Part shown: piece after piece, positions 2,223-48,567 of the stretch | Position numbering within the stretch: position 1 is the first letter of the stretch | Layout of the letters: every line of letters starts with the position of its first letter | Assembly (NCBI GenBank): GCA_043808325.1 | Contig: JAZDEY010000044.1 | Location: 1-64,000, forward strand | Direction: 5' to 3' | DNA length: 64,000 bases | Source of the DNA: JAZDEY01 sp043808325 [NCBI: Candidatus Eiseniibacteriota bacterium] | GTDB lineage: Bacteria > Arandabacterota > Arandabacteria > Arandabacterales | Translations under genes and position numbers: made by a program | The notes under the pieces: generated by a model | Told to the model about the DNA's origin: nothing | The model's input: the letters and a program-made list of their open reading frames with translations, nothing else | Databases searched by the model: none

Positions 2223-2263
2223 GATATGGTGAGCCTCCGGATCAGGCAATCACGGGCTGCAGT

Positions 2264-2301
2264 AGGGGTGCCTTACCCCTTGTAGATACTCGCTTCTTTT
2301 T
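2264..2301 (+). terminator. Possible weak intrinsic terminator
   Basis: A short stem AGGGGT (2264-2269) pairs with ACCCCT (2275-2280) across a 5-base loop, and a T-rich stretch (2295-2301) follows about 15 bases later. The stem is short and the T-run is displaced, so termination is only a guess. It lies between the acyltransferase and the dcw promoter, where a terminator would make sense. Confidence 0.25.
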
Positions 2302-2313
2302 GCAAAAAACAGC

Positions 2314-2342
2314 TTGACACGCTTCCGACTCCCTGATAGCCT
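2314..2342 (+). promoter_or_regulatory. Candidate sigma70 promoter of the dcw operon
   Basis: TTGACA at 2314-2319, a 17-base spacer ending in TGA, then TAGCCT at 2337-2342, giving a perfect -35 and an extended -10. It lies about 58 bases before the TTG start of mraZ. No tandem TGGGN-type MraZ operator was recognised. Confidence 0.55.
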
Positions 2343-2399
2343 GAGGTCCTAAGTGGGATTGAGCGGTGTCGGGCGGCATTAAACGGGAGCGAAGCAGAG

Positions 2400-2885
2400 T
2401 TGTCGGACTTCAAGGGCACATTCAAGCACGCAGTCGACCAGAAAGGACGCTTCAGCGTCCCGATTCAGGTCGTCAGCGGGCTTGCCCTCTCGGCGGATCA
2501 CACCTTCGTCGTATCCACGGGTCCCGAGAAATGCCTCGACGCATATCCCAAGGATGAGTGGACCCGGAGAGTCCAGAAGCTGAAATCGTTGCCCGGCGGG
2601 AAGCTGGGACGCTACTACAAGCGCCTGATTGTGGGCGATGCCCGGGAATGCAAGTTGGACGGGCATAAGCGCATCCTGGTCCCACCTGAGATCCTCGCGC
2701 GCGTGGGCATAACCAACATGGTCCTGATCGTCGGACAGATCGATCATCTGGAGCTATGGAAACCGGAGGATTACGGGACCTACCTCGAATCCCAGGACAT
2801 AGCTCCGGCAGACGTCTTCGACAAAATGGATTCATACTTCAACGAGCACCAGTCGGGTGCTAATGAAAGCGGCAGGGTAAGGTGA
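2400..2885 (+). CDS. mraZ: Transcriptional regulator MraZ
   Basis: The 161-residue protein begins FKGTFKHAVDQKGRFSVP, matching the conserved first MraZ/SpoVT-AbrB half (D-x-K-G-R). A second half around residues 80-100 (ECKLDGHKRILVPPEI) has the D-x-x-x-R-[IL]-x-[VI]-P pattern. Family members are ring-forming DNA-binding proteins that sit first in dcw operons and repress them. The TTG start at 2400 places the conserved motif at the family's usual distance, with GGGAG upstream as ribosome site. It is slightly longer than the usual ~145 residues at the C-terminus. rsmH follows 4 bases after the stop. Confidence 0.93.
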   Translation: MSDFKGTFKHAVDQKGRFSVPIQVVSGLALSADHTFVVSTGPEKCLDAYPKDEWTRRVQKLKSLPGGKLGRYYKRLIVGDARECKLDGHKRILVPPEILARVGITNMVLIVGQIDHLELWKPEDYGTYLESQDIAPADVFDKMDSYFNEHQSGANESGRVR

Positions 2886-2889
2886 ATGC

Positions 2890-3825
2890 TTGAGAGACGA
2901 CAAGGATACGTTGCATGTGCCGGTGATGGTCGAGGAAGTCAAACACTGGCTCCTTGCCGCTCAAACCCGGGTGATAGTCGATATGACGGTGGGCACGGGC
3001 GGTCATGCACTTGCGCTCCTAAAGGCCGCGCCGCTGGGATGCCGTCTGATTGGGCTCGATCTTGACAGCGATGCACTTGCGATTGCGGAGAAGCGGCTTG
3101 AGGAATTCGAGGATAGGGTGACCCTAAAGAAGAGCAATTTCGCCGATGTTCTCGATGCCATTCCGGCGGATATTGCCGGCGGTGTGGATGCAATCCTCAT
3201 AGATTGCGGGATATCAAAGCTGGAGATCGTCACATCAAAGAGAGGATTCAGTTTCGACAGAGACGACGCCCTTGACATGAGATTCGACGCTTCAGGCGGG
3301 ACAACCGCGAAAACATTCGTGGCGAGTGCCAGTGTCGAGGAACTGACCGAACTCTTCAAGGAGTATGGTGAGAAATCGCATGCGAGGAAGATAGCCAAGA
3401 CGATGGTCGCCCGCCGGGACCACGGCAGGATGGAATCCACGCTGGATCTCGCCGACGCGGTCAAGTCGGTCGTAAGGGGCAGACAGGCCAGTTCGCTGGC
3501 GCGGGTTTTCCTGGCCCTGAGAGCAGCGATAAACCGGGAAACCCAGAATCTCGCCGCAGCGATCGAGGCCTTTCCCCAGGTGCTTTCGGCCGGAGGCAGG
3601 GCATGTGTGATTTCCTATCATTCAGTCGAGGATAGAGTGGTCAAGACCCTCTTTAGGAGATATTCAGGCAAGTGCGTATGTCCACCCTGTAGCGTTGTTT
3701 GCAGTTGCGGAATGAAGCAGGTTTTCAAGGTTCTTACTCCCAGGCCGCTGTCGCCGACGCCTGAGGAGATTGAGAATAACCCTTCTGCAAGAAGTGCAAA
3801 ACTAAGGGTGGCAGAGAAGATGTAA
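2890..3825 (+). CDS. rsmH: 16S rRNA (cytosine-1402-N4)-methyltransferase RsmH
   Basis: RsmH (MraW) methylates C1402 of 16S rRNA using S-adenosylmethionine. The N-terminus HVPVMVEEV, the SAM-binding loop VDMTVGTGGHA and GLDLDSDAL, the motif DAILIDCGIS and the C-terminal YHSVEDRVVK are all present in order. The length of 311 residues is normal. A cluster of cysteines after residue 255 (CVCPPCSVVCSCG) resembles the Cys-containing loop of other RsmH proteins. The start is TTG at 2890; an ATG at 2886 is out of frame. It is the second gene of the dcw operon. Confidence 0.95.
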   Translation: MRDDKDTLHVPVMVEEVKHWLLAAQTRVIVDMTVGTGGHALALLKAAPLGCRLIGLDLDSDALAIAEKRLEEFEDRVTLKKSNFADVLDAIPADIAGGVDAILIDCGISKLEIVTSKRGFSFDRDDALDMRFDASGGTTAKTFVASASVEELTELFKEYGEKSHARKIAKTMVARRDHGRMESTLDLADAVKSVVRGRQASSLARVFLALRAAINRETQNLAAAIEAFPQVLSAGGRACVISYHSVEDRVVKTLFRRYSGKCVCPPCSVVCSCGMKQVFKVLTPRPLSPTPEEIENNPSARSAKLRVAEKM

Positions 3826-7659: not shown

Positions 7660-9025
7660 AATCGACGAGATAGCGGGGACGGTCGGCGCCGAAGTACCCT
7701 CAGGCTCCGGCGAAGGCCTCGCCGCTACCGGCTATTCAATCGATACACGGCACCTGAGACAGGGCGATCTGTTCTTCGCCCTTAAGGGTGAGACGTCTGA
7801 TGGGCATCAGTTCATTGGGGATGCCTACGAGAAAGGTGGAGTCGGTGCAGTGGTGGACAGGGTGACCAGTGGACTTCCCCAGAGCTTCCCCCAGCTTGTT
7901 GTGCCGTCCCCGCTCGAAGCCTTGCAGAGGCTTGCCGGCCACGTTCGTGTCGGTAGCGACGTACCCGTGGTAGCCATCACCGGATCCAACGGCAAGACCA
8001 CCACCAAAGAGATGATCGCGTTTCTGCTCGGCACCAAGATGCGGGTCCGCAAGAGTCCGGGCAACTTCAACAACCATATCGGAGTGCCGCTCTCGATTCT
8101 TGCACTGGAAGCAACAGACAGAGTCCTTGTCATAGAGCTGGGGACCAACCACAGAGGTGAAATCTCCGAACTGTGCCGGATTGCGAGGCCTCAGGTAGGA
8201 GTGATAACCAACATAGGGCGGGCCCATATCGGTCTGTTGGGCTCGCTCGAGGCAATTGCTGCTGAGAAGACCGATCTTGCGAGAAGCCTTGATGCTGAAG
8301 GCAAAGCGGTGATCAATGGTGACGACCAGATTCTGATCGAGTCCCTCGGAGACACCAGAGCTCAGGTCACCACCTTCGGGATGACGAGGAGTGCAGCCTT
8401 CAGGGCCTCAGACGTCAGAATGATCAACGGCAAGGGTTCGGTCTTCAAGCTCAAGGGCTTGACGATAACGGTCAAAGCCCCGGGTCTTCACAACGTCTAT
8501 AACGCCCTCGGTGCGATCGCGGCAGCAAGCCTCTTTGGGGTCTCGCTGAGAGAAGCCGCGGACGCCCTTCCTGGGTTCGAGTCGATGCGCATGAAGACCG
8601 CGGCCTCGGCCGGGGTCACCATCATAGATGACACCTACAACTCCAATCCTGATTCGGTGATGGCGGCCCTTAGTGTGCTTACCGGTACCAAGGCTTCAAG
8701 ACGGATCTTCATAATGGGTGAGATGCTCGAGCTTGGGGACGCGGCCGAGGCACTTCATCGCGAGGTCGGTGCCGCAGCGGCACGGGCCGGTGTTGATATC
8801 CTGATCGCGGTCGGAGGCCTTACCCGCAAGGCGGCGGAGGGGGCGCGGGCGGCCGGCCTCAATGCACGCAACACGATCTATTTCGAGACCAAGGCCGATC
8901 TCAAGCGGTCCCTGGCGCACATTATCAAACCTGAAGATGTTGTACTTGTAAAAGCGTCCCGGATGTCGGGGCTAGAAGAGATAAGCGATTTCTTGAGGTC
9001 CAATCCAATCGCGGGGAGAATCTGA
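7646..9025 (+). CDS. murF: UDP-MurNAc-pentapeptide synthetase
   Basis: MurF adds D-Ala-D-Ala to the UDP-MurNAc-tripeptide. Visible motifs are the P-loop AITGSNGKTTTKEMI (~residue 110), ELGTNHRGEIS, NIGRAHIGLLGS and the C-terminal DDTYNSNPDSVMAAL. The ATG at 7646 is preferred (GGGGCGG 6 bases upstream); a TTG at 7640 would add two residues. The gene overlaps the end of murE by 14 bases, implying translational coupling. No ddl gene was recognised in the cluster, so D-Ala-D-Ala ligase must be encoded elsewhere. Confidence 0.95.
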   Translation: MPRLRIDEIAGTVGAEVPSGSGEGLAATGYSIDTRHLRQGDLFFALKGETSDGHQFIGDAYEKGGVGAVVDRVTSGLPQSFPQLVVPSPLEALQRLAGHVRVGSDVPVVAITGSNGKTTTKEMIAFLLGTKMRVRKSPGNFNNHIGVPLSILALEATDRVLVIELGTNHRGEISELCRIARPQVGVITNIGRAHIGLLGSLEAIAAEKTDLARSLDAEGKAVINGDDQILIESLGDTRAQVTTFGMTRSAAFRASDVRMINGKGSVFKLKGLTITVKAPGLHNVYNALGAIAAASLFGVSLREAADALPGFESMRMKTAASAGVTIIDDTYNSNPDSVMAALSVLTGTKASRRIFIMGEMLELGDAAEALHREVGAAAARAGVDILIAVGGLTRKAAEGARAAGLNARNTIYFETKADLKRSLAHIIKPEDVVLVKASRMSGLEEISDFLRSNPIAGRI

Positions 9026-9026
9026 A

Positions 9027-10112
9027 TTGTTCTATCATCTGCTCTACCCCCTGAGGGATCACATACATATTTTTAACGTCTTCAGGTACATCACCTTCAG
9101 AACGGCCTATGCCACGCTGACCGCCCTGCTGATATGTTTCATCCTGGGACCCGCGATCATCAGGCTGCTCAAGAGATACGGCGTCGTCGACGGCGTCCGC
9201 ATGGACACGCCCGAGCGCCACGCCGGCAAACAGGGCACGCCCACGATGGGCGGCGTCATGATTCTGCTGGCGGTCGTCTTGCCCACCTTGCTCTGGGCGA
9301 ATCTTACCAACAAATACATCTTGATCTGCCTCTTTGCGACCTGCTGGCTCGGGGCCATGGGCTTCATCGACGATTACCTGGGGGTCGTCAAGCGCAAGCC
9401 GACCGGCCTTGTCGGAAAATACAAGATCGCAGGCCAGGCATTGCTGGGCCTCCTGGTTGGGACCTTGATCCTCATGTTTCCGGACAATCCAGATCTTGCG
9501 ACCAAGACAACGGTGCCCTTCTTCAAGAATGTGTTCCCCGATCTCGGCATATTCTACATACCGTTTGTGATCCTGGTCGTCATCGGTGCGTCCAATGCTG
9601 TCAACCTCGCGGACGGGCTGGACGGGCTCGCGATCGGGATGTTCGCTTTTGCGGCGGTCGCATTTGCCGGACTGGCCTACGTAACGGGACACGCCAAGTT
9701 CTCCAGCTATCTTAACATTCTCTATCTGAGACAGGCAGGTGAGCTGACCATATTCTGCGGCTCGCTTGTAGGCGCATCCTTGGGGTTCCTCTGGTTCAAT
9801 GCTCATCCGGCCCAGGTCTTCATGGGGGACACGGGCTCCCTCGCACTGGGTGGGGCGCTCGGCGTGGTCTCCATCCTTATAAAGAAAGAGATCTTGCTCT
9901 TGATCGTGGGCGGCATCTTTGTCGTCGAGGCTCTCTCGGTAATCATACAGGTGGCGTCGTTCAGGCTTACCGGCAAGCGCGTCTTCAAGATGGCGCCGAT
10001 TCACCACCATTTCGAGCTCGTGGGGTGGCCCGAATCGAAGCTGGTGGTAAGGTTCTGGATACTCTCGGTGCTGCTCGCACTGGTGACGCTCAGCACTCTG
10101 AAACTGAGATGA
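9027..10112 (+). CDS. mraY: Phospho-MurNAc-pentapeptide transferase MraY
   Basis: A polytopic integral membrane enzyme that makes lipid I from UDP-MurNAc-pentapeptide and undecaprenyl phosphate. The 361-residue length matches the family. Signatures are FNVFRYITFR at the start, MGGVMILL, DDYLGVVKRKPTGLVGKYKI, NAVNLADGLDGLA, the catalytic Asp region AQVFMGDTGSLALGG, and the HHHFE motif near the end. The start is TTG at 9027, one base after the murF stop, with GGGGAGA upstream. The stop overlaps the murD ATG. Confidence 0.96.
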   Translation: MFYHLLYPLRDHIHIFNVFRYITFRTAYATLTALLICFILGPAIIRLLKRYGVVDGVRMDTPERHAGKQGTPTMGGVMILLAVVLPTLLWANLTNKYILICLFATCWLGAMGFIDDYLGVVKRKPTGLVGKYKIAGQALLGLLVGTLILMFPDNPDLATKTTVPFFKNVFPDLGIFYIPFVILVVIGASNAVNLADGLDGLAIGMFAFAAVAFAGLAYVTGHAKFSSYLNILYLRQAGELTIFCGSLVGASLGFLWFNAHPAQVFMGDTGSLALGGALGVVSILIKKEILLLIVGGIFVVEALSVIIQVASFRLTGKRVFKMAPIHHHFELVGWPESKLVVRFWILSVLLALVTLSTLKLR

Positions 10113-26078: not shown

Positions 26079-27095
26079 ATGTGGACCAGATTGAGGGCAC
26101 TGCCTCCGTACTTCGGTGGTAAGCGGAGGCTCCTGGGCAGGATCTTCAAGCATATGCCTAAGCCGGAGGAGTCGCCGGTCTTGGTGGACGCGTTCCTGGG
26201 GGGAGGGTCCGTGTCGCTGTTTGGGAAGGCGCGCGGCTACCGGGTCATCGCCAATGATATCGCCTTCCGGAGCTCGATCGTCGGGAAAGCCTTGATTGAG
26301 AACGACCATGTGACGCTGACGCCAGATGACGTGACCAGGCTCTTTGTGGAGAACGGTGATGGCCCCGGCTTCATCGAGCAGAACTTCTCCCGGAGCGTGC
26401 TCACCACCAAGCACGCCCGGTTCCTGGACCAGGCCTTCCCGGCAGCTCGGAAGGTTGAGGGGACGAAGCGCTGGCTACTCTTGTTGCTCCTTACGAAGTA
26501 CGTGTTGCGTATGAGGCCGATGGGCAACTTCGGAGCCAAGACGATCATCCAGCAGGCTGAGGACGCCAAGTGGGAGGAAATGAACCAAAACTACCTGAGG
26601 GACATGATCTCGAGGAGCATCGCCGGTCACCCGAAGGCCGTGGCCGAGGGGCTGCGCCGGACGGTCAATGCCGGTGTCTTCTCCAATGGCCTGAAGAACG
26701 AGGTTCATCATCTCGATGTGTTTGACTTTCTTGGGCAGGTGGAGGGCGACATCCTCTACCTGGACCCGCCGTACGCGGGGACATCGCCCTACGAGACCTC
26801 CTTGAGGGCACTGGACTGTATCCTGGAGGGGAAGATGGTGCGCCAGGAGGTGAGTGCCTTCAGCAGGGCAGACGCCATCGCCGTCCTGGAGCGGCTCCTT
26901 GAAGCCAGCCGGAAATTCCCCTTGTGGATCCTGTCCTATGGCAACGCGACGATGGGCCTCGATGGGCTCGTCGAGCTCGTGGGGAAGTTCAAGCAGGTCG
27001 AGCATGCCGAGGAGATTCCCTACATCCACCTGACCGGCCTGAGTGGCGAGGAACGAAGAAATGCCAACCGTGAACTGTTAGTTGTTGCGAGGTGA
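26079..27095 (+). CDS. D12-class N6-adenine DNA methyltransferase, phage type
   Basis: 339 residues. It has the D12/Dam N-terminal motif LPPYFGGKRRLLGRI, the SAM-binding FLGGGSVSLFGKARG followed by ANDIA, and the catalytic motif IV DPPYAGTSPYE (a DPPY motif). It methylates adenine in DNA. The two genes after it (ParB-like, small-terminase-like) match the early part of the packaging module of many tailed phages, so this is probably a phage remnant rather than a restriction enzyme partner; no endonuclease was seen nearby. The 226 bases before it contain no gene. Confidence 0.88.
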   Translation: MWTRLRALPPYFGGKRRLLGRIFKHMPKPEESPVLVDAFLGGGSVSLFGKARGYRVIANDIAFRSSIVGKALIENDHVTLTPDDVTRLFVENGDGPGFIEQNFSRSVLTTKHARFLDQAFPAARKVEGTKRWLLLLLLTKYVLRMRPMGNFGAKTIIQQAEDAKWEEMNQNYLRDMISRSIAGHPKAVAEGLRRTVNAGVFSNGLKNEVHHLDVFDFLGQVEGDILYLDPPYAGTSPYETSLRALDCILEGKMVRQEVSAFSRADAIAVLERLLEASRKFPLWILSYGNATMGLDGLVELVGKFKQVEHAEEIPYIHLTGLSGEERRNANRELLVVAR

Positions 27096-27097
27096 CA

Positions 27098-27730
27098 ATG
27101 ATGAGCAAGGCATTTGAACTGGTCGAGATAGAGGTCGGCAATCTCAAGCCGAATCCCTGGAACCCTAACCGTATGTCGGACGAGATGTACCACAAGCTTA
27201 AGGCCTACATTAAACGCGAGGGGCTGGTGGAGCCAATTGTGGTGAGGCCAAAGGGCGAGGGCTACGAGATACTGGGTGGGTTCCACAGGTGGAAGATTGC
27301 CAGGGATCTGGGATACGAGACGGTCCCCTGCGCCGTGGTGGAACTGGATGATCGCCGGGCAACGATACTCTCGATAAACCTCAACGAGATGAAGGGGCAG
27401 AGCGTATCGGCGCTGCTCTCAGAGCTCGTGCACGATCTTAGCCAGGAGCTGAGTCTTGAGGACTTGGAGACACAGCTCCCATACAGCGAGGCAGACCTCA
27501 AGGATGTCCTCGAGGTCATGAAGATCCCGGATGGGTTAGAAGCGTATCTGGATGCGGAGATCGAGAAGGCGGAGCGCGAGCGGCCCCACATCCTGTCGTT
27601 TGTGGTCGAGGACGTGGACACGGTCGAGAAGGCTCTCGAAAGCGCCTCACAGCGCAACGGTGGCCTCACCAGGGGCGAGTCCCTGGTCGAGATCGCCCGG
27701 GCTTACGTAGGTGAGGTGACTGCCAAGTGA
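27098..27730 (+). CDS. ParB/Srx-fold nuclease-domain protein, phage type
   Basis: About 210 residues. The N-terminal ~95 residues carry the ParB-N fold: IEVGNLKPNPWNPNRM, LVEPIVVRPKGEGYEILGGFHRW with the E-x-G-x-[HR]-R box, and YETVPCAVVELDD. The C-terminal half is helical and charged without a recognised DNA-binding domain. Such proteins sit next to terminase genes in phages. The start is probably the ATG pair at 27098/27101 (GAGG upstream), overlapping the methylase end; a GTG at 27092 is less likely. Its stop overlaps the next start (27727). Confidence 0.8.
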   Translation: MMSKAFELVEIEVGNLKPNPWNPNRMSDEMYHKLKAYIKREGLVEPIVVRPKGEGYEILGGFHRWKIARDLGYETVPCAVVELDDRRATILSINLNEMKGQSVSALLSELVHDLSQELSLEDLETQLPYSEADLKDVLEVMKIPDGLEAYLDAEIEKAERERPHILSFVVEDVDTVEKALESASQRNGGLTRGESLVEIARAYVGEVTAK

Positions 27731-28126
27731 AGGAGCAGGAGCATCACAAGAGAGCGTTTGAGTTCTACTACGGGCTTGGCGAGAGCAGGAACTACAATCT
27801 GGTTGCTGAGGAATTCGGGGTATCAGTCGGCGCTGTCAAGATGTGGGGCAGGTCAGGTCGCCGAGCGCAGCATGAAAGATGGGATCGAACGGGGCGTGAG
27901 GAACCTGAAGATTATTGAAATGGGCCTGCTTCAAGTGGCCAAAGCCATAGCTGATGGCAAGGTGAAGCCCACCGTTTCGGATCTGGATAGGCTTATCAGG
28001 TTGGAGGAGTTCCTGAGAGAGGAACGAAAAGCAGGTGAGCAGACGAAGTTCATCATCGAGTGGAGAGACGCCAGCAATCCGAGTGAGGGGCAAGACAAGG
28101 AGGCTGGCGAACCCTCGACCGGGTAA
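27727..28126 (+). pseudogene. Small-terminase-like HTH gene, copy A1, frameshifted
   Basis: The N-terminal part is read from ATG-like position 27727 (GTG AAG GAG): a short helix-turn-helix-type sequence (YNLVAEEFGVSVGAVKMW) as in phage small terminases. That frame runs out at 27918. The C-terminal part (ERSMKDGIERGVRN ... LEEFLREERKAGEQTKFIIEWRD) lies in another frame from about 27858 to 28126. Together they read as one gene broken by a frameshift at about 27850-27860. The C-terminal part is the master of a four-copy repeat in this window (A2 29888-30184, A3 31943-32281, A4 34945-35235). The small-terminase assignment is an inference from context and HTH form. Confidence 0.6.
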
Positions 28127-28206: not shown

Positions 28207-28243
28207 ACCAGCGCCCTCACTGACGGCGGGCGCACCGAAACCC
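28207..28243 (-). repeat. 3' conserved block of the first variable region (IMH-like)
   Basis: These 37 bases match 33238-33274 with two mismatches. They cover the last codons of the SUMF1 gene, its stop and 10 bases of non-coding DNA. Conservation across a stop codon between otherwise diverged genes fits the anchor (initiation of mutagenic homing) that lies at the 3' end of DGR variable regions. This role is inferred. Confidence 0.5.
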
Positions 28244-29731
28244 GAGGCTGTAGAACGAATACGACGGGACGTCGCCGTACCGGAACGCGCATCGCAGGGC
28301 GTCGGAGCCGTAGTAGCGCCACGAGCCGCCCCGCAACACGCGAGAAGAGCCCGCGGAAGGACCCTTAGGGTCCTCGGTCTCAGTGGGGTAGCAAGTATGC
28401 CAGTCGTTGCACCACTCCCACACGTTGCCCGCCATATCGTACAGCCCCAGATAACTCTTTCCCAACTCATAACTCCCCACTGGCGACGTGCTACCCACGC
28501 AGTAGTACCCGTTATAGAAGTTGGCCCGGCTGCAGTCCGGCGACTCGTCCCCCCACGGATATATCCGCTCTCCACCATACTGCGTCGCATACTCCCACTC
28601 AGCATCCGTAGGCAATCTGTAACCCGCCGCCGTGTATGGATTGCCATTATTGCATTGCCACGTCGAATGGTTGTAGGCTTTGCCATACCCCGCCTGCAGG
28701 CTCAACCAATCACAGTAGGCAGCCGCACCATACCAACTCACCTCCATCACCGGGTGGTTCTCCTTGCCCGAATCCACAGTGAAGACACCACTACTGAATG
28801 AGATCTGGCAGTTGCTGTCGACAAGGTCCACCAGAAGCGCGGTGCTCCCATCAAGGTTGTCATGCACCGCTGAGGAGGTGGCCGCCACATAGCCGTGGTC
28901 ATAAGCCCACTGGAGGGCGTCCCGGTACTCCTTGTTCGTAACCTCATACTTGCCCAAATAGAAGCTATGAGTGAGTGTGACCTGGTGCTGATCCTCACCG
29001 CAATCTGCCACTCCGTCCCCCATGGTGAACGTTCCTGCTGGGATGTGCACCATCTCAGGCAGCGTTAGGCCCGGACCAGTGACCGTCACCACGCGCGTCG
29101 TGTCGTCGGCGAGAGATCCCGTGTCTTTGACCTCCAACTTGATCGCCTTGGGCCCAGTCGTGCCGTACTTATGGCTTGCCGTCTTAATAGTCGACCAATT
29201 AGTATCCCACCCGTCATTCTCCCAGTCCCACCGTACCTGAAGGACTGAGACTGCGTCCTGGGCATCGGAGCAGCCCGAGGCATCAAACTGGAAGACTGTG
29301 TCCGTTGTTCCTGACGCTGGACTCACCGTGAACGATGCTGTGGGGGCCGTGTTAACAGCGGAGACTGTCAGCGTCCGGGTAGTATCGTCCGCTGCCTCCT
29401 GAGTATCCTTCACCTCAAGCTTGACCGTCTTGGTCCCCACCGTCGCAAACTGGTGATCCACTGTCTTGGTAGTGGACCACTGCGTGTCCCACGTACCGTC
29501 ATTCTCCCAGTCCCAACGTACCTGCAATGAAATGGGGGTGTCCTCAGCATCCGAGCAGCCTGATGCATCGAACTGGAAGATTGTCTCGGTCGTCCCCGAC
29601 GCCGGACTCACCGTGAACGATGCTACGGGGTCGATATTTGGGCTCTCAGGGTTATCCTTGCCACAACTCAGAACGAGCAGGAACAGCACGAACATGAGAA
29701 GACCAGCCAACTCGGCACGCTTCGTTAGCAT
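28217..29731 (-). CDS. PKD-SUMF1 (formylglycine-generating-enzyme fold) lipoprotein with DGR-type variable C-terminus
   Basis: The start is ATG 29731 with GGGAGG upstream. It gives a lipoprotein signal (LLMFVLFLLVLSC, lipobox LVLSC), then two PKD-like Ig domains (ASFTVSPASGTTETIFQFD ... VRWDWENDG) at ~30-215 and a SUMF1/FGE-type domain to the end (VEVSWYGAAAYCDW-like, YRLPTDAEWEYATQYGG, GNVWEWCNDWH, RVLRGGSW, GFRCAR). The upstream frame to 29860 is unlikely to be translated. In such proteins the fold serves as a binding scaffold rather than an enzyme. The stretch between SW and GFRCAR (28244-28318) is the hypervariable part. A paralogue lies at 33248-34756. It sits between repeat copies A1 and A2. 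Confidence 0.85.
   Translation of the reverse strand: MLTKRAELAGLLMFVLFLLVLSCGKDNPESPNIDPVASFTVSPASGTTETIFQFDASGCSDAEDTPISLQVRWDWENDGTWDTQWSTTKTVDHQFATVGTKTVKLEVKDTQEAADDTTRTLTVSAVNTAPTASFTVSPASGTTDTVFQFDASGCSDAQDAVSVLQVRWDWENDGWDTNWSTIKTASHKYGTTGPKAIKLEVKDTGSLADDTTRVVTVTGPGLTLPEMVHIPAGTFTMGDGVADCGEDQHQVTLTHSFYLGKYEVTNKEYRDALQWAYDHGYVAATSSAVHDNLDGSTALLVDLVDSNCQISFSSGVFTVDSGKENHPVMEVSWYGAAAYCDWLSLQAGYGKAYNHSTWQCNNGNPYTAAGYRLPTDAEWEYATQYGGERIYPWGDESPDCSRANFYNGYYCVGSTSPVGSYELGKSYLGLYDMAGNVWEWCNDWHTCYPTETEDPKGPSAGSSRVLRGGSWRYYGSDALRCAFRYGDVPSYSFYSLGFRCARRQ
28244..28318 (-). other. Candidate DGR variable region VR-a
   Basis: 25 codons between the fixed Trp (28319-28321) and GFR. Most are NNC codons (cgc tac tac ggc tcc gac gcc; ttc; tac ggc gac gtc; ttc tac agc ctc), as expected if AAC codons of a template were mutated at adenines. 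Compared with VR-b, 17 of 24 aligned codons change the amino acid, and 15 of these keep the same third base. Confidence 0.7.
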
Positions 29732-29887
29732 CGCAATCCTCCCTCGCAGAGATTGACACGCACGTGAACCCCCATCGCTAAGAACCTTGAACCGATAATT
29801 CCTCGGGCCTATCAGCGTGTCGTGGGTCCGTCGAGACTCGCATGAAGGGCATGATAGCATACTGCCTTTCTCCTCCGCAAGCGTTCC

Positions 29888-30184
29888 GTGGCCATCTACA
29901 GCCGACCCGTGGCCGAGCGCGGGATGAAGGACACCATCGAGCGAGGCCTCAGGAACCGGAATCTGGTTGAGATGGGCCTCGTTCAGGTCGCAAAGGCGAT
30001 AGCAGAGGGCAAGGCAAAGTTCATGGTCTCAGACCTGGACAAGCTCATCAGGCTGGAGCAGTTCTTGAGAGAAGAGGGCAAGGCAGGTGAGCAGACGAGG
30101 GTCATCTTTGAGTGGAGAGACGCCAGCAAGCCGAGTGAGGGGCAAGACGAGGAGGCTGGCGAACCCGAGACCGAGGGAGAATGA
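29888..30184 (+). pseudogene. Truncated small-terminase-like gene, copy A2
   Basis: Repeats the C-terminal part of A1: RGMKDTIERGLRN, VAKAIAEGKAK, DLDKLIRLEQFLREEGKAGEQ, EWRDASKPSEGQDEEAGEP. The HTH half is missing. Upstream of the shared part, a short stretch (KRSVAIYSR) resembles that of copy A4 (KRFLPIFRHR), so both kept a little more of the ancestor than A3. A GTG at 29888 could start a 98-residue product, but with the DNA-binding half gone it is treated as a fragment. Gene B2 follows 3 bases after the stop. Confidence 0.6.
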
Positions 30185-30187
30185 ACC

Positions 30188-30481
30188 ATGGCTGTTCAAT
30201 TGTCGCAGCAGAGGAGGATCGATCTGTTCAAAGCATATTGCGACAGACGGTCTATCCAATCTGTAGCGAGGAAATGCGCAGTTTGCCCGACCACGGCCCT
30301 TCGCTACAAGAGGATGGACCATTGGGATGAGCGCCTAAGTGGCATCAAGCAAAAGACTGAGGATAAGGTAGATGATTCAATTGCCGAGATGGAGGCACGC
30401 CAGGCCAAGCAAGCCAGGGCCATACAGGCCAAGGCGTTGCAGAGGATACTGCAAGTCCCGGTGCCCTGCGCAATTCACTAA
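30188..30481 (+). CDS. Second small HTH protein, terminase-small-subunit-like (copy B2, 3' end possibly truncated)
   Basis: 97 residues: MAVQLSQQRRIDLFKAYC, an HTH-like region (SIQSVARKCAVCPTTALRYKR) and a charged helix (DKVDDSIAEMEARQAKQARAIQAKALQRIL). The layout is like phage small terminases or HTH adaptor proteins. The reading frame ends exactly at the 3' end of the convergent serpin gene (stop overlap at 30478-30481), so the original C-terminus was probably lost when the serpin segment became joined. A decayed second copy (B3) follows repeat A3 at 32285. Confidence 0.5.
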   Translation: MAVQLSQQRRIDLFKAYCDRRSIQSVARKCAVCPTTALRYKRMDHWDERLSGIKQKTEDKVDDSIAEMEARQAKQARAIQAKALQRILQVPVPCAIH

Positions 30482-31758
30482 CTACCCGGGTTCACCACCT
30501 TCCCCGTGAAAAGGATTGCACCCTCGTACCTGTCGCGGATGAAGAAAAGGAACGGACGATCGACTTTCATCCAGAAAGAAGTGGAAGTATCCGGGGATGC
30601 ACCGGCGCCAATGACCACCGTGGCTGCCGCCGCCTCTGTGCCCGCTTCGTCCACTTTGAGGTAGGTCTTATGTAGCACCTCATCTATGAACATGTCCGCA
30701 GTGCACATCTCTGAGAAATCTGCGCTCCCCGGGTCGAACGCTATCCCCATACCTAGTCGTCTCAGGGCGTCGTTCAAGGCGCAGGCGTATTCCACCCGGA
30801 ACCTCGGCATCAAGACCTCGCCCAGGCGCGTTGAGAAATCCTCCTGCCACGTATCCCAACTATCCCGATCCAACGCCGATATCACCGAATCAACACTCTT
30901 TCCGGGCTTCGGGAGCAAAATGGTCATGCTGAACCAGCCCCCACCGTAAGGCAGATCAACTGCCTGGAACAAGTCGTTGGACAAATAGGCGTATCTTAGC
31001 ATGAAGTCGTCGCCATACCCGGCCGGAACAGCAAGTTTCGTCATCATCATGCAGGGCACTCTTGAACCATTCGGCAGTGTGAACGAGTCACCCCGGGTAT
31101 ATAAGGGATCGAACGGATACTCCCACGGACCCAAGAAGTAGATTGCATTCACGAGCAGTGCGATCGTTTTCGGATCAATCGGTTTCGCGACGATGTCTCT
31201 GATCTTACCGTTGGTTTTCTCCTCCACCCAGGTGTTGACTGTGTCCGCGGCGTCCTCTCTATTGAGGTCCAGCTCGCGGACTTCAGAATGGAAGTAGGTC
31301 CTGCATCTTTCCAGAAAACTCTCTTGGAAGCCAATGCTCTCCCGTCCCCAGAACGAGTTTGCGATCCGGAATGTGACTTTGGGATCAAGTCCGGTCAGAA
31401 GCTTGATAAGAGCTTGGTAACACTCATCGGCGCTCGCCAGGCTGTAGCCATCGAAGCCAAGCGTGGCCAGCATCGCGTCACGCGTAGTACCAGCGGCTCC
31501 GTTCGCGGTCATCCCAAGCGCCATCGACACACTGAGCGGCGACGCAATGACATTACTGTCTGGCCGGTCCTTCACAATCTCCTTGAAGAGTTTGAAAGCA
31601 AAATCATTGGTTGCGGAAACCAGTGTCTTTTGAGTCAGGGCCAGGCCGCCATCGTCATTGTTCCCGTTGTCTCCGGGCGCCAGACCAGGCTTATCGCCAC
31701 AGGCGGGCAGCACCATACATATCAGGACTAGCAGGACAAATCTGGTCGCATTCCTCAT
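30478..31758 (-). CDS. Serpin lipoprotein
   Basis: The start is ATG 31758 (GAGGGA upstream). It gives a lipoprotein signal (FVLLVLICMVLPAC, lipobox LPAC), a Gly/Asn/Asp linker and a full serpin domain: NDFAFKLFKEI, SNVIASPLSVSMALGMTANGA, NTWVEEKTNGKIRDIV, LLVNAIYFLGPW, the hinge EAGTEAAAATVVIGAGAS and the C-terminal DRPFLFFIRD. The small-residue hinge (GTEAAAAT) is the form found in inhibitory serpins. By the usual spacing P1 would be near Ala, hinting at elastase-like targets; this is an inference. An outer-surface protease inhibitor may protect against host or competitor proteases. It lies between repeat blocks A2-B2 and A3-B3. Confidence 0.9.
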   Translation of the reverse strand: MRNATRFVLLVLICMVLPACGDKPGLAPGDNGNNDDGGLALTQKTLVSATNDFAFKLFKEIVKDRPDSNVIASPLSVSMALGMTANGAAGTTRDAMLATLGFDGYSLASADECYQALIKLLTGLDPKVTFRIANSFWGRESIGFQESFLERCRTYFHSEVRELDLNREDAADTVNTWVEEKTNGKIRDIVAKPIDPKTIALLVNAIYFLGPWEYPFDPLYTRGDSFTLPNGSRVPCMMMTKLAVPAGYGDDFMLRYAYLSNDLFQAVDLPYGGGWFSMTILLPKPGKSVDSVISALDRDSWDTWQEDFSTRLGEVLMPRFRVEYACALNDALRRLGMGIAFDPGSADFSEMCTADMFIDEVLHKTYLKVDEAGTEAAAATVVIGAGASPDTSTSFWMKVDRPFLFFIRDRYEGAILFTGKVVNPGS

Positions 31759-31942
31759 TTTCGGTCCCTCGCTCTCGTTTCCCTGACATAACCACGCTAT
31801 CCGAGCTTCAACCATGTATATGGTGCCACTTTCGGAGCGATTTGCAAGTCCTAATTGCCTGGTAGACATCCAGAGATCCCCAGGGCTCCTCGCCGGTTCT
31901 GGAGACCAGCCCGCCAACGCTGCGTAGCGGTGTACTGAACGG

Positions 31943-32281
31943 GTGGCACGCAAGATCCGCCTTCAGTCCCAAGCCGAGAACACGGTCCACTTCATGCGCC
32001 AGGGACATGCCCAGCGCGGGATGAAGGACAGCATTGAACGGGGCCTAAGGAACCGGAAGCTTGTTGAAATGGGTCTTCTTCAAGTGGCCAAAGCCATAGC
32101 CGAGGGCAAGGTGAAGCCCACCGTCTCAGACCTGGACAAGCTGATTAGGCTGGAGGAGTTCTTGAGAGAAGAGGGCAAGGCTGGCGAGCAGACGAAGGTT
32201 GTCATAGAGTGGCGGGATTATACCAATCCGAGCAAAGAGCAAGATGAGGAGGCTGGCGGACCCGAGACCGAGGGACAATAG
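31943..32281 (+). pseudogene. Truncated small-terminase-like gene, copy A3
   Basis: From about 32007 the sequence matches the other copies (RGMKDSIERGLRN, MGLLQVAKAIAEGKVKPTVSDLDKLIRLEEFL, GEQTKVVIEWRDY). The 64 bases before this in the open frame are unrelated to the other copies, so the start at 31943 is fortuitous. It keeps the stop position and is followed 3 bases later by remnant B3, as A2 is followed by B2. Confidence 0.6.
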
Positions 32282-33237: not shown

Positions 33238-33274
33238 ACCAGCGCCCTCACTGACTGCGGGCACACCGAAACCC
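33238..33274 (-). repeat. 3' conserved block of the second variable region (IMH-like)
   Basis: Counterpart of 28207-28243 (35 of 37 bases identical), again spanning the stop codon (33248-33250) of the SUMF1 gene and 10 bases beyond it. Confidence 0.5.
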
Positions 33275-34756
33275 GTTGAAGCTGCTCGTGGTCGACGGGA
33301 GGTAGCTGTTCCGGGCGGCGCATTGCAGGCTGCCGCCGTCATCGTACCACGACTCGCCACGCAACACGCGATACGAGCCCGAAGGCGGGCCCTTAGGGTC
33401 AGCCACAGGCCCGGTACCCAGGTCACACGTATGCCAGTCGTTGCACAACTCCCACACATTCCCCGCCATGTCATACAGCCCCAGCGACGCGGGCGCTGCT
33501 GGGTAGCTCCCTACAGGGGCCGTCGAGCCCACACAGCCAGAGTAGTTGGCCCGACTGCAATCCGGGCTCTCATTGCCCCATGGATAGATCCGCTCGCCCC
33601 CGTATTGAGTCGCATACTCCCACTCCGCGTCAGTCGGTAGGCGATACCCACTAGCCCCATAAGGGTCCCCGCTGTTGCACTGCCAGGTTGAGTGATTGTA
33701 CACACGCGCAAGCCCCTGACTCATGTTGAGCCAATCACAATACGCTGCCGCCCCATACCAGGACACGTTCACCATGGGGTAATCCTCCTTGCCCGAAGCC
33801 ACCGTGAAAACGCCCCCGCTGAAGGAGATCTGACAGTCGCTTTCAGCAAGATGTACCAACAGCGCTGTGCTTTCATCCAGATTGTCATTGACTGCCGACG
33901 ATGTGGCTGTCACGTAGTTGTTGTCATCCGCCCACTGGAGCGCGTCCCGGTACTCCTTGTTGGTTACCTCGTACTTTCCCAGATAGAATGAATGTGACAA
34001 GGTGACCTCGTGCTCATCGACACCACAATAAGCCACGCCGTCACCCATCGTGAATGTCCCCGCAGGAACGAGGACCATCTCGGGGGTCTCAAACGGGATG
34101 CCGACCGCCACCGTCCGCCTAGACTCACCTGTCAGCCCTCCGGTGTCCTTCACCTCCAACTTGATTTTCTTACTCCCCGGCGTGCCATACTGATAGATTG
34201 CTGTCTTGATAGCAGACCACCCGGTATCCCACGTACCATCGTTCTCCCAATCCCAACGTACCTGAAGGGCAGAAATTGGGTCCTCGACGTCAGAACACGA
34301 TGATGCGTCAAACTGGAATACCGTATCCGTTGTGCCGGTCGTCGGGGTCACATTGAAGGAGGCTGTCGGTGCGGTGTTCTGACTCTCCACGGTTACCTGC
34401 CGGGTTGCCGTGTCCGTGAGTCCGCCAGTGTCTCTAACCTCCAAGGCCATCGTGTTGATCCCTATGGTGCCGAATTGGACACTCGCTGTCTTCGTTGTGG
34501 ACCACTCGGTATCCCACGTACCGTCGTTATACCAGTCCCACCGTACCTGCAGTGAGGGAGTCGGATCTTCGGCATCCGAGCAGGCTGAGGCATCAAACTG
34601 GAACACCGTCAGCGTCGTCCCACTTGCCGGGGTCACCGTGAAGGATGCTGCGGGGGCTGTATCCGGGTTTTCACAACTGTCCTTACTGCAGCTGAGAGCT
34701 AATACTATCAGAACAAACATAAGAACTACAGCCGCACTACCACGTATCGTACGCAT
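33248..34756 (-). CDS. PKD-SUMF1 lipoprotein, paralogue of 28217, with DGR-type variable C-terminus
   Basis: ATG 34756 opens a lipoprotein signal (VVLMFVLIVLALSC), two PKD-like domains (ASFTVTPASGTTLTVFQFD; ASFNVTPTTGTTDTVFQFD) and a SUMF1-type domain (PEMVLVPAGTFTMGDGV, VSWYGAAAYCDWLN, YRLPTDAEWEYATQYGG, GNVWELCNDWH, RVLRGESW, GFRCARSQ). Architecture is identical to the protein at 28217. In conserved parts the two genes differ largely at silent third positions, but between SW and GFRCAR they differ in first and second positions. Repeat copy A4 lies just beyond its 5' end, as A2 does for the paralogue, so gene and repeat may have been duplicated as a block. Confidence 0.85.
   Translation of the reverse strand: MRTIRGSAAVVLMFVLIVLALSCSKDSCENPDTAPAASFTVTPASGTTLTVFQFDASACSDAEDPTPSLQVRWDWYNDGTWDTEWSTTKTASVQFGTIGINTMALEVRDTGGLTDTATRQVTVESQNTAPTASFNVTPTTGTTDTVFQFDASSCSDVEDPISALQVRWDWENDGTWDTGWSAIKTAIYQYGTPGSKKIKLEVKDTGGLTGESRRTVAVGIPFETPEMVLVPAGTFTMGDGVAYCGVDEHEVTLSHSFYLGKYEVTNKEYRDALQWADDNNYVTATSSAVNDNLDESTALLVHLAESDCQISFSGGVFTVASGKEDYPMVNVSWYGAAAYCDWLNMSQGLARVYNHSTWQCNSGDPYGASGYRLPTDAEWEYATQYGGERIYPWGNESPDCSRANYSGCVGSTAPVGSYPAAPASLGLYDMAGNVWELCNDWHTCDLGTGPVADPKGPPSGSYRVLRGESWYDDGGSLQCAARNSYLPSTTSSFNGFRCARSQ
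33275..33346 (-). other. Candidate DGR variable region VR-b
   Basis: 24 codons between the fixed Trp (33347-33349) and GFR: tac gat gac ggc ggc agc ctg caa tgc gcc gcc cgg aac agc tac ctc ccg tcg acc acg agc agc ttc aac. Fixed codons ctg, tgc, cgg, ccg and tcg coincide with those of VR-a; variable ones are nearly all NNC. Confidence 0.7.
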
Positions 34757-34944
34757 CGCGGTTCTCCTTCTGTTGAGATTGATATGCATCGCCAGCCCAC
34801 AGGCCTAAGGCCGAGTCTGACGGCACAGAAGCGACAATGCGAGCCGTTAGCTATATCAGACTCACTTGGACGTGAGCGTATCACACCGCATATCTACCCT
34901 GCAAGCGCTTCCTGCCTATCTTTCGCCATCGCGCCGAGCGCGGG

Positions 34945-35235
34945 ATGAAGGACACCATCGAACGGGGCGTGAGGAACTTGAAGATTATTGAGATGGGCCT
35001 TCTTCAAGTGGCCAAGGCCATAGCCGATGGCAAGGTGAAGCCCAGCGTATCGGATCTGGATAGACTCATTAGGCTGGAGGAGTTCTTGAGAGAAGAGGGC
35101 AAGGCTGGGGAGCAGACGAAGATTATCTTCGAGTGGAGAGACGCTACCAAGCCGAGTGAGGAGCAAGATGGGGAGGCAGGCGGGCCCGAGGTGAGAACGC
35201 TGAGAACCGCTGAACCCAAAGTTGGTTCTCCCTAG
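34945..35235 (+). pseudogene. Truncated small-terminase-like gene, copy A4
   Basis: Homology to the other copies begins a little before the ATG (GCCGAGCGCGGGATGAAGG at 34931-34949) and ends near 35190 (GEAGGPE); the last ~15 codons are unrelated. It lacks the HTH half and the B gene. It is closer to A1 in wording (RGVRNLKIIEMGLLQVAKAIADGKVKPSVS). It may be translated, but no function is expected without the DNA-binding half. Confidence 0.6.
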
Positions 35236-38680: not shown

Positions 38681-39415
38681 CTAAGGGATTCTCACTGCCT
38701 TCTGCGGTTCCACGGTACCGAGCAATAGCTTTGACTGGAGGAGCTTCGTCCCTCGGTTTCGGTGACTCAGGATGCCGTAGTACCTGATCTTGACAAAGCC
38801 ATCAGGCAAGACATGTAGCAGGAAGCGGCGAATGAACTCCGTGCCCCCGAGTGTCATCACCTTGGTCTTGTTGTGCCGGGCCGAGTCACGCCAACGAAAG
38901 GTCACCTCGTCGTCCTTCAACTTAACGAGGCGATCATTGGATAACGCCACCCGATGGGTGTATCGGCCCAGGTAATCGATCACCTGCTCGGGCCTTCCGA
39001 GAGGAGCTTTGCAATAGACTACCCAAGCCTGCCGGTAGAGAGCGGTGATGAGATTGTTGAAAGCAGCGTCTGGCTCGGGCTCGTCGATCCTGCCTGGTGC
39101 CTTGAGTCGCCCTGAGTCGTATTCGTTCCCTAGATGCTCGAGAAACACTCCCCTGAATAGCTGAGACAACACCTTGACCGGGATAAACAAGCCCTTGCGC
39201 CACGAGATCCATCGTTTCTCATCCCCGGACAATCCCCCTGCGGTGACGACGCAGTGAAGATGAGGGTGGTCGATCAGAGTCTGGGTCCAGGTGTGAAGGA
39301 CGGCGATGAATCCTAGCTGTGCCTCCAGGTACTTGGGATCATTGGCAAGGGTGGCGAGGGTGCGGGAAGCAGCTCTGAAGAGGAGGGCACAGATTACTTC
39401 TTGATTCCTCAGGGC
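38681..39415 (-). pseudogene. IS91-family (Y2/HUH) transposase, 5'-truncated
   Basis: The reading frame shows IS91/ISXO8-type landmarks: LFRAASRTLATLANDPKYLEAQLGFIAVLHTWTQ, the HUH-like HPHLHCVVTAGGLS, YLGRYTHRVALSNDRL with the catalytic Tyr region, and GGTEFIRRFLLHVLPDGFVKIRYYG. The family's N-terminal zinc-binding domain is missing. The frame's apparent first ~23 residues belong to an IS3-family fragment (39416-39502), so the true 5' part has been lost. Not expected to be active. Confidence 0.8.
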
Positions 39416-39502
39416 CCAGGGCAATGACCGGGGCGCTTCACCCCTCTCAGGCTCTTGCGGAACTAGCATTATGAGTGGTACCATCGTTGGGGGCAGGTCA
39501 AG
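39416..39502 (+). mobile_element. IS3-family 3'-end remnant, left copy
   Basis: 87 bases that match 48390-48476 in inverted orientation with two mismatches. In the plus frame they encode the last residues of an IS3-type OrfB (RAMTGAL..SQALAELAL, stop), followed by the terminal sequence ending GGGGGCAGGTCAAG. It is fused directly to the IS91-type remnant on its left. Confidence 0.65.
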
Positions 39503-46206: not shown

Positions 46207-47400
46207 TCAGTCCTTGAACAGCGTCTTGATCTGCCCCCATGTGGAAGGCTGGGTTCCTAATGTAGCCGTGTCGAAGTTCCACGAGCAGCTGACAGCATCC
46301 GAAAAGTCGAATGGTCCACCACCAACTCCCGAGAGATTCATAGTGTCGCTGCGCAGACTTACGATGCAGGTGTCTCCTTCTGAGAATGCAAAGGACACAG
46401 CTCCCGCGCCGCGAGCGGGTATAGCAGCGATCTCCCCATTGAACTGTAAGGTGAATGTCTGCCAGCCGTCGTCTGGCATGTTCACATGTGAGCTTGAGTA
46501 TGACAGCTGAAACTCGCCATCCGTATCCGCAACGAACTGATAGACCCAGACGGGGGGATTATAGTCCGTGTAGGGGGTACATGCGCCTCTCACCTCGATA
46601 GCCACACCATCGCTTATCCCCATCTCCATCAGACCTGCCTCGATGTGCACGGCACCTGCGTTAACACCCGTCCACGATGCCTCGACGTGACCTGAGCAAC
46701 TCGCGGAGGCGGTCCCGTCGCCGAGCGCTATCGATACTGCAACTGCCATAGGGTCCAACGTACCGACCTGACTCTCGACCTTCAGATCGCTCGTGTCGAT
46801 ACCGGCGCCGTAAAAGTCAATCACAGCTACCATTCCGACCTCAGAGCGGAGCGGCACTGGGGCTGCCTCAACTTCGCAAATGTAGCCGCGACGGTGGGCA
46901 GTTGGGTTATCCGATTCACCGTCGTCCCACCGATCACCCATGCGCCCACCCAGATTGAAGAAGCGGAGACGATTCTGACTGCCGCCACCGCCTTCGTCGG
47001 GTTGCCCAGTCTCCCAATTGGTGTAGACGAAGGGCTCATCGGTGACCCATCGCCAGCCCCCATCCGGCTCCTCCGAACCGGGCGGCTGATATCCTCCGAG
47101 CCATGGGCCAAGCCCGTTGCCATACGCGTCAAGGTACCAGAAAGCGGTATCGCATCTAACCAAGCTGAAGACGAATGCGTTTTCCTCCGCAGAGGTGATC
47201 GTTACCAGATGACCGCCGCGAGCCTCGCAGCTATCCTGTGCCTGATCCCATGATATTCCCGGTGCCAGAACTGCCTCATAGCAATGACCGTTATCCCATG
47301 TCACGGTCCCGGTAGGACAGTTTGTAACAGGATTAGAATCGTCGCCACACCCAGCCGCTATCGAGAGGAGCAGTGCCAGGCCACAGATAGATCTCCACAT
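46207..47400 (-). CDS. C-type-lectin-domain lipoprotein with C-terminal TWGxIKxLF tail
   Basis: ATG 47400 gives a lipoprotein signal (ICGLALLLSIAAGC). A C-type lectin-like domain follows at ~25-175: WDNGHCYEAV, W-DQAQDSCEARGGHLVTITSAEENAFV, WLGGYQPPG, EPDGGWRWVTDEPFVYTNWETGQPDE, then GYICEVE. The W-x-G/N-W and E-P-D/N-type Ca/sugar loop (PDE) suggest carbohydrate binding, which is an inference. The C-terminal ~200 residues are beta-rich and unrecognised. The end PSTWGQIKTLFKD parallels the secreted protein at 32537. The upstream frame to 47439 is not needed. Confidence 0.82.
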   Translation of the reverse strand: MWRSICGLALLLSIAAGCGDDSNPVTNCPTGTVTWDNGHCYEAVLAPGISWDQAQDSCEARGGHLVTITSAEENAFVFSLVRCDTAFWYLDAYGNGLGPWLGGYQPPGSEEPDGGWRWVTDEPFVYTNWETGQPDEGGGGSQNRLRFFNLGGRMGDRWDDGESDNPTAHRRGYICEVEAAPVPLRSEVGMVAVIDFYGAGIDTSDLKVESQVGTLDPMAVAVSIALGDGTASASCSGHVEASWTGVNAGAVHIEAGLMEMGISDGVAIEVRGACTPYTDYNPPVWVYQFVADTDGEFQLSYSSSHVNMPDDGWQTFTLQFNGEIAAIPARGAGAVSFAFSEGDTCIVSLRSDTMNLSGVGGGPFDFSDAVSCSWNFDTATLGTQPSTWGQIKTLFKD

Positions 47401-47563
47401 TTCATCCCCCTTTCTTCCGGTGCATTGAACTATCCGCACCAGTCACATGAATCCGACCCTCGCCGACCGTCCTAGACATTATGACTTCCGTGAATTGGAG
47501 GCTGACCTCCATAATCGAGGGTTAGCCTCACAGAGACCAACTTTATCACGACAACGTTATCCA

Positions 47564-48298: not shown

Positions 48299-48567
48299 AA
48301 TCCCTGCTTTCTCCATTTTCCCGCTTGCGCCCAACCGCGCCTCAGGCCGTTACCAGATAGCAGCCTTTGGGCTGCTCTGCCGGATAAAGCTTGACCTGCC
48401 CCCAACGATGGTACCACTCATAATGCTAGTTCCGCAAGAGCCTGAGAGGGGCGTAGCGCCCCGGTCATTGCCCTGGCCACCCGCCACGTCCATGCCTCCG
48501 GCGCCGGTGGCCGGTACCCCAGAGCGCTGTGCGGCCTGACCGCGTTGATCTACCGACTGTAGTGCGG
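48299..48567. other. Gap holding the IS3-family remnant
   Basis: No intact gene lies between the M23-like lipoprotein and the DUF1858 promoter; the main content is the transposase fragment described separately. Confidence 0.6.
48390..48562 (-). mobile_element. IS3-family OrfB 3' remnant, right copy
   Basis: Read on the minus strand this encodes the C-terminus of a DDE transposase of the IS3 group (INAVRPHSALGYRPPAPEAW, then RVARAMTGALRPSQALAELAL, stop), followed by the terminal CTTGACCTGCCCCC (plus-strand view, 48390-48403). The 5' side carries a stop after HYSR-like codons, so it is dead. It matches 39416-39502 inverted, 85 of 87 bases. Confidence 0.75.

What the first reader, a model, noticed from the sequence alone, without database searches (positions are those of the whole stretch)
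28217..28321. SUMF1 lipoprotein at 28217 ends in a DGR-type hypervariable region
Seen directly: compared with its paralogue (33248), codons between the invariant SW and GFRCAR differ at 17 of 24 aligned positions, and in 15 of those the third base is the same. The changes are concentrated in first and second bases of NNC codons. In a conserved block ~230 bases upstream (YRLPTDAEWEY..., about 25 codons) the proteins are identical but ~16 codons differ silently. This reversal of the normal pattern is what mutagenic retrohoming from an AAC-rich template produces. Established: DGR target proteins often carry exactly this SUMF1/C-type lectin fold with the variable stretch next to the C-terminus.
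Basis: partly seen in the sequence, partly recalled or inferred. Interest (0 to 1): 0.92.

Follow-up and report, generated by a model that had tools for sequence, protein, structure and literature searches.

The report
Hypervariable surface proteins, retroelement-written
Two neighbouring bacterial surface-protein genes carry a stretch that looks rewritten by a diversity-generating retroelement, a gene-copying machine that makes errors at A's on purpose, although the machine itself lies outside this piece of DNA.

Summary
Between SW and GFRCAR, 17 of 24 aligned codons of the two SUMF1 lipoproteins differ in amino acid and 15 of these 17 keep the third base; elsewhere 56 of 138 do. Codon usage predicts 5.3 of 17; 0 of 50,000 draws reach 15. 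I found no template repeat, reverse transcriptase or Avd in the window, and its genome is not held. But a Ca. Eisenbacteria MAG (G002) has a whole DGR cassette with a homologous target, Avd, AAC-rich template and RT. That foreign template is in codon register with the window: the two window copies differ at 24 of 37 positions where it has A and at 6 of 59 elsewhere (p = 2.5e-8). Orthologues at one locus in two related genomes show the same pattern. The predicted head fold is that of FGE enzymes and of the Treponema DGR protein TvpA. Best reading: two remote DGR target lipoproteins, rewritten in trans. Whether the machinery is still present or active in this organism is not shown. New member of a known kind.

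The parts
28217..29731 (-). SUMF1/FGE-type lipoprotein gene A (listed ORF opens at 29860; likely start is codon 44, ATG at 29731, behind a GGAGG-like site)
   Evidence: Pfam FGE-sulfatase 5.4e-55, PKD_4 1.3e-11 in two stretches; start chosen by eye
29663..29665 (-). lipobox cysteine of A (LVLSC)
   Evidence: read from the translation; no signal-peptide program was run
28226..29062 (-). FGE / C-type-lectin-fold head domain of A
   Evidence: Pfam residues 267-545; model pLDDT 92
28223..28318 (-). variable region of A
28207..28351 (-). block of A that is unusually alike between A and B outside the variable bases, running 10 nt past the stop
   Evidence: (family D14)
33248..34756 (-). SUMF1/FGE-type lipoprotein gene B (listed ORF opens at 34789; likely start codon 12)
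   Evidence: Pfam FGE-sulfatase 5e-50, PKD_4 5.6e-9 in two stretches; start by eye
33254..33346 (-). variable region of B

Best explanation
Both genes are target (variable-protein) genes of a diversity-generating retroelement (DGR) that lies outside this window and acts in trans. A reverse transcriptase with Avd copies an AAC-rich template RNA with errors at A; the cDNA replaces the 3' end of each gene, so AAC codons become NNC (never a stop) while the other bases, silent ones included, are reset to the template. The product is a lipoprotein with PKD domains as a stalk and a C-type-lectin/FGE-fold head whose variable residues make a binding face: a diversified surface receptor or adhesin. Shown: the sequence pattern, its register with a real template in a relative, the predicted fold. 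Inferred: RT and template in this genome, surface display, ligand binding.
For: Pattern and significance. Complete cassette in G002: target L107:38-1024, Avd 1198-1584 (NF033474 over its cut-off), template about 1600-1720, RT 1940-3007 (phrog_1423, 7.7e-126). Window A against B: 24 of 37 at template-A positions, 6 of 59 elsewhere (A's extra codon left out). Orthologues G006:C42 and G007:C17: 13 of 24 codons of the region differ in amino acid, 12 of 13 keep the third base; rest 58 of 273 and 28 of 58. Within-genome SUMF1 pairs: p < 0.01 in 8 pairs from 6 of 15 genomes or records (window included), p = 0.034 in one virus record, p >= 0.08 in 8 genomes. Of the 5 positive genomes other than the window, 3 have an RVT_1 match, and an A-substituted template beside it is clear in 2 (G002, G024) and weak in 1 (G025). 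Fold: TvpA 2y3c first of 446 compared chains, Z 29.9, 2.1 A over 235 residues.
Against: No RT or Avd match in the window (tblastn best E 6.4 and 0.33) and no template (best unrelated full-length scan score below zero, best 50-nt piece 9.0). Two of the 5 positive genomes, G007 and G023 (its locus on a 5.0-Mb contig), have no RVT_1 match, so the signature does not guarantee an RT in the same genome. A and B differ at 6 of 59 non-A positions, against 0 of 59 in the G002 target-template pair: the last rewriting may not be recent, or the copies use different templates. G006 has an RT and template, but that template fits its C42 target poorly (60 match, 19 A, 29 other of 108). By sequence and by Foldseek E-value ordinary FGE enzymes score above TvpA, so the fold alone does not single out a DGR protein.
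Confidence: 0.93

Rival explanations
1. Orphan targets: the regions were written by a DGR, but RT and template have been lost from this lineage or the genes were acquired alone, so they are fossils now. This is a variant of the best explanation and shares its probability.
For: No machinery found in 64 kb; 6 of 59 non-A differences; positive pairs in G007 and G023 without an RVT_1 match; T. denticola isolates with targets but no core DGR are described (PMC4891356, passages).
Against: Targets far from the RT are described often (76 of 121 DGR-diversified cyanobacterial genes, PMC7517822, passage) and G002 has two further target genes on other contigs. Third bases differ at 3 of 24 codons in the region against 241 of 478 elsewhere, so the rewriting is much younger than the A/B split.
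Confidence: 0.25
2. No retroelement: fast change of a surface loop under selection, with strong preference for C at third bases, makes changed codons keep their third base by chance.
For: In FGE-type proteins at large this stretch varies (consensus of 36 sequences).
Against: Own codon usage gives 5.3 of 17, never 15 in 50,000 draws; 8 other genomes' SUMF1 pairs lack the pattern; differences follow the A's of a real template from a relative.
Confidence: 0.02
3. Gene conversion: A and B, or further paralogues, exchange 3' segments by recombination, which equalises silent sites, without mutagenic retrohoming.
For: Other target genes of G002 share an exact 141-nt stretch upstream of the region, so such exchange may occur in these families.
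Against: Conversion would equalise the amino acids too; here 17 of 24 differ while the silent bases agree, and the differing bases match template A's.
Confidence: 0.03

Closest known systems
Treponema denticola DGR variable proteins (TvpA and remote lipoprotein paralogues)
   Same: Same predicted head fold (2y3c); many targets are lipoproteins and some lie far from the RT or in strains without one (PMC4891356, passages)
   Different: PKD domains between lipid anchor and head here; RT and template not seen in this organism
Remote variable proteins of cyanobacterial DGRs
   Same: C-type-lectin heads with a variable region at the 3' end, away from the DGR locus (PMC7517822, passages)
   Different: Those are mostly predicted cytosolic (same passages); these have lipoboxes
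DGR of Ca. Eisenbacteria MAG Dive96_bin2.117 (G002, contig C36)
   Same: Homologous SUMF1 target; template in codon register with the window's regions
   Different: Cassette complete in G002; target next to the RT; the target ORF there is short at a contig end, so its N-terminus was not compared
Sulfatase-modifying-factor (FGE) enzymes
   Same: Pfam FGE-sulfatase; Z about 27 with human FGE
   Different: Hypervariable stretch at the C-terminus; no NCBIfam model of this fold reached its cut-off; catalysis not tested

Membership tests
DGR target (variable-protein) gene | Differences fall on template A positions and spare other bases | tested here: met
   24 of 37 against 6 of 59, with the template of a relative, not its own
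DGR target (variable-protein) gene | Variable region at the 3' end of the gene, NNC codons | tested here: met
   region ends at the next-to-last codon; third base C 28 of 34 in changed codons
DGR target (variable-protein) gene | C-type-lectin-type head | tested here: met
   predicted model matches TvpA Z 29.9 and Mtd Z 13.8 among the 446 chains compared
DGR target (variable-protein) gene | Matching template and RT in the same genome | not testable with these tools
Complete DGR cassette in this window | RT, Avd and template near the target | tested here: not met
   tblastn and template scan of the 64 kb; the window is therefore not filed as a DGR cassette
DGR target (variable-protein) gene | IMH and 3' stem-loop behind the variable region | tested here: inconclusive
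   A and B share about 35 nt through the stop; no conserved hairpin: z 0.71 (A), -1.52 (B)
Formylglycine-generating enzyme | Copper-binding catalytic cysteine pair | not tested
   cysteines listed but not mapped onto a solved enzyme

The most novel reading that the evidence does not exclude
The region is an exchange platform: four copies of a small gene segment (R) space lipoprotein or secreted-protein genes (SUMF1 A, serpin, a 200-aa protein, SUMF1 B), so DGR targets without their own RT spread and duplicate as modules by recombination between R copies and are diversified in trans by whatever DGR the host carries; slippage on AAC runs also changes the length of the binding loop by whole codons.
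Probability: 0.15. Interest if true: 0.65.

Novelty: new member of a known kind. Interest (0 to 1): 0.5.

Why it matters
It shows that remote DGR targets can be suspected from two paralogues alone, without RT or template, by kept third bases in changed codons. A large survey says its approach would not detect remote targets on fragmented contigs (PMC8144416, passage), so such genes are undercounted. It adds a DGR in Ca. Eisenbacteria (no paper in the held library has both terms) and PKD-stalked lipoproteins as targets (neither of the 2 papers holds 'PKD domain'; one search lists 3 papers with 'PKD', not opened for that term). The orthologous pair that differs by one codon is a natural case for slippage in AAC repeats, which a 2026 paper says was posited earlier (PMC12875486, passage).

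Tried and rejected
Template in the window: A-tolerant scan of both strands with both variable regions, whole and in 50-nt pieces; outside the regions themselves the best full-length scores were below zero and the best 50-nt piece scored 9.0. Variable-region pattern over viral contigs: 0 matches; the 3' flank motif of the window: no match in 179 loci. Origin of the R repeats: no relative in viral contigs, phage records or the 7 genomes (that tool warns that an empty answer without a positive control shows nothing). The adjacent ParB-like protein has distant phage relatives, best row 31% identity; it and the methylase gave no relative in viral contigs, and those scans find close relatives only. 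Host group by FtsZ: 53-59% in 6 of 7 genomes of the phylum set of G002 and 36-62% in 13 of 15 others, not decisive. Stem-loop behind the region: A z 0.71, B z -1.52; behind the G002 target z -4.35, behind its template z -0.65. The RT of G001 looks like a group II intron type by its frame (by eye) and no template fitting its SUMF1 genes is near it. An inherited 7-codon class instead of slippage: the tree joins the 6-codon gene of G006 with the 7-codon gene of G007 (99/97) and needs at least 2 changes, but 8 of its 13 inner branches are open and only 7 rows were labelled.

Limits: 65 distinct stretches passed my motif filter in the loci then held; pairs with under 100 aligned codons or under 35% identity outside the region were dropped; no correction for multiple tests; G002's second gene is partial. 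Weak Avd-family matches below the cut-off occur in 9 of 18 genomes in all, negatives included, so only the over-cut-off ones (G002, G025) were used. NCBIfam's best model for the G002 RT is the group II one, at 156 bits under its cut-off of 300; the DGR reading of that RT rests on phrog_1423, Avd and template.

Full report
What was claimed and checked. A codon alignment gives the same numbers: 24 aligned codons between SW and GFR, 17 amino-acid differences, 15 of 17 with the third base kept. In the rest of the pair 56 of 138 changed codons keep it (Fisher p = 1.8e-4), and third bases differ at 241 of 478 codons against 3 of 24 here. A test with no position chosen beforehand finds the best 24-codon window near the C-terminus, score 14, reached by 0 of 20,000 shuffles. 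Codon preference does not explain it: drawing codons from the pair's own usage gives 5.3 of 17 matches and never 15 in 50,000 draws.

Where it ends. The changes reach the next-to-last codon (28223-28225), and A and B stay nearly identical to 10 nt past the stop (28207). Upstream the likeness begins near 28351 (3 third-base differences in 11 codons), which is also about where template and target homology begins in the relative below (read). Copy A has one codon more than B between SW and the LR/LQ that follows.

The window alone. I found no template and no match to the G002 RT or Avd (tblastn best E 6.4 and 0.33). The genome is not held.

A relative with the whole machine. The two best were a MAG named 'bacterium LQ108M_Bin_12' (G001, 56%) and Ca. 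Eisenbacteria Dive96_bin2.117 (G002, 73% over a partial gene). Contig C36 of G002 has, within about 3 kb, a SUMF1 target gene, an Avd (NF033474 over its cut-off), an AAC-rich template encoding GGSWNNNENNLRSANRNNNNPNNTNNNNGFRVARN, and an RT (phrog_1423, 7.7e-126; NCBIfam offers only a group II model under its cut-off). That target differs from the template at 19 of 37 A positions and 0 of 59 others. Two more genes, on C43 and C55, both end in the same exact 141-nt overlap with C49, which carries a 3' end: read as an assembly fork, this means two further targets away from the RT (the fork being my inference).

The foreign template tested on the window. With A's extra codon left out, 32 codons line up without gaps. 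A and B differ at 24 of 37 positions where the G002 template has A and at 6 of 59 where it does not (p = 2.5e-8). The template's one ACG codon is TCG in A and ACG in B: a change at its A and nowhere else. Of the 6 exceptions, one is at a codon where the template has GAG and one at CGC (window CGA/CAA); both would be explained if the window's own template has A there (inference). The other four are at third bases.

Controls. Among 17 within-genome pairs in 15 genomes or records (window included), 8 pairs in 6 genomes have p < 0.01, a virus record has p = 0.034, and 8 genomes have p >= 0.08 (uncorrected). Of the 5 positives other than the window, G002, G024 and G025 have RVT_1 matches; G007 and G023 have none. 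A matching template beside the RT is clear in G002 and in G024 (68 match, 22 A, 18 other of 108) and weak in G025 (58, 20, 30 of 108); in G025 an Avd over the cut-off lies about 290 bases from that RT match. Of the 8 negatives, 4 have an RVT_1 match (G001, G027, G030, G033), none with a template near it that fits its own SUMF1 pair (best score 2.0); G030 has an AAC-rich stretch near an RT match that its SUMF1 genes do not fit. So the signature goes with being a DGR target, imperfectly.

Same locus, two genomes. G006:C42 and G007:C17 lie in matching surroundings (90% identity over 6,688 columns). Their SUMF1 genes differ at 13 of 24 codons of the region, 12 of 13 keeping the third base, against 58 of 273 and 28 of 58 elsewhere, and by one codon in length. 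In the tree the two are sisters (99/97), so length changed between orthologues. G002's C49 also has one codon more than the G002 template (its placement within the AAC run is by eye). Slippage in AAC repeats has been posited before (PMC12875486, passage).

Fold and job. The head domain of A is predicted with pLDDT 92 from a 36-sequence alignment. In the VIA comparison of 446 chains TvpA of the Treponema DGR comes first (Z 29.9, 2.1 A over 235 residues), PorK and FGE enzymes follow at about Z 27, and Mtd of BPP-1 is at 13.8. Foldseek by E-value puts FGE enzymes first and TvpA 15th, and by sequence too FGE is ahead (7.7e-34 against 7e-22). Both genes have a lipobox-like LSC motif and two PKD stretches. 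The likely job, by inference, is a surface-displayed binding protein with a renewable face.

What remains open. No RT or template has been seen in this organism, so the system may act in trans, may be lost, or may never have been resident. The 6 of 59 non-A differences mean that the copies are not fresh products of one template. Remote targets and strains with targets but no RT are both described (PMC7517822, PMC4891356, passages), as are SUMF1-type targets (PMC6642488, passages).

Noticed in passing
window 27872-28126, 29924-30184, 32021-32281, 34945-35235 (+): Four copies of a gene segment of about 85 aa (74-85% identical to the copy at 34945), alternating with opposite-strand genes (SUMF1 A, serpin, a 200-aa protein with SUMF1 B). 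Weak hits to phrog_1476 (unknown function). No relative found in viral contigs, phage records or 7 related genomes.
   Followed up: partly
window 26079-27730 (+): D12-type adenine methyltransferase followed by a ParB-like protein (phrog_723), just before the repeats; possibly a decayed prophage piece.
   Followed up: partly
window 30478-31953 (-): Serpin (PF00079, 6.4e-108) in a lipoprotein-like gene between two repeat copies.
   Followed up: no
window 38681-39484 (-), 39416-39502 and 48390-48476: Y2_Tnp transposase, and an 87-nt inverted repeat (98%) whose arms lie 8.9 kb apart.
   Followed up: no
window 46207-47439 (-): Lipoprotein-like gene with a C-type lectin domain of Pfam PF00059, a different family from the SUMF1 heads.
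   Followed up: no
L145 about 7900-9600 (G006:C8): Another DGR-like locus in the phylum set: RT followed by a template encoding GGSWNNNAQNCRSANRNNNTPDNRNNNLGFRLAST, with an Avd match just under the cut-off (79.5 bits, one TGA); the template does not fit that genome's C42 target well.
   Followed up: partly
L027 (Poribacteria; SUMF1 genes at 4628, 9835, 12692): All three pairs of SUMF1 genes show the kept-third-base signature (15 of 15, 13 of 14, 12 of 15), yet the genome has no RVT_1 match.
   Followed up: no
L089 (IMGVR_UViG_3300032177_000002), 10271 and 11965: Virus record with two SUMF1 genes 1.7 kb apart that differ in a DGR-like way (10 of 11 keep the third base, p = 0.034); no RVT_1 match in the record.
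   Followed up: no
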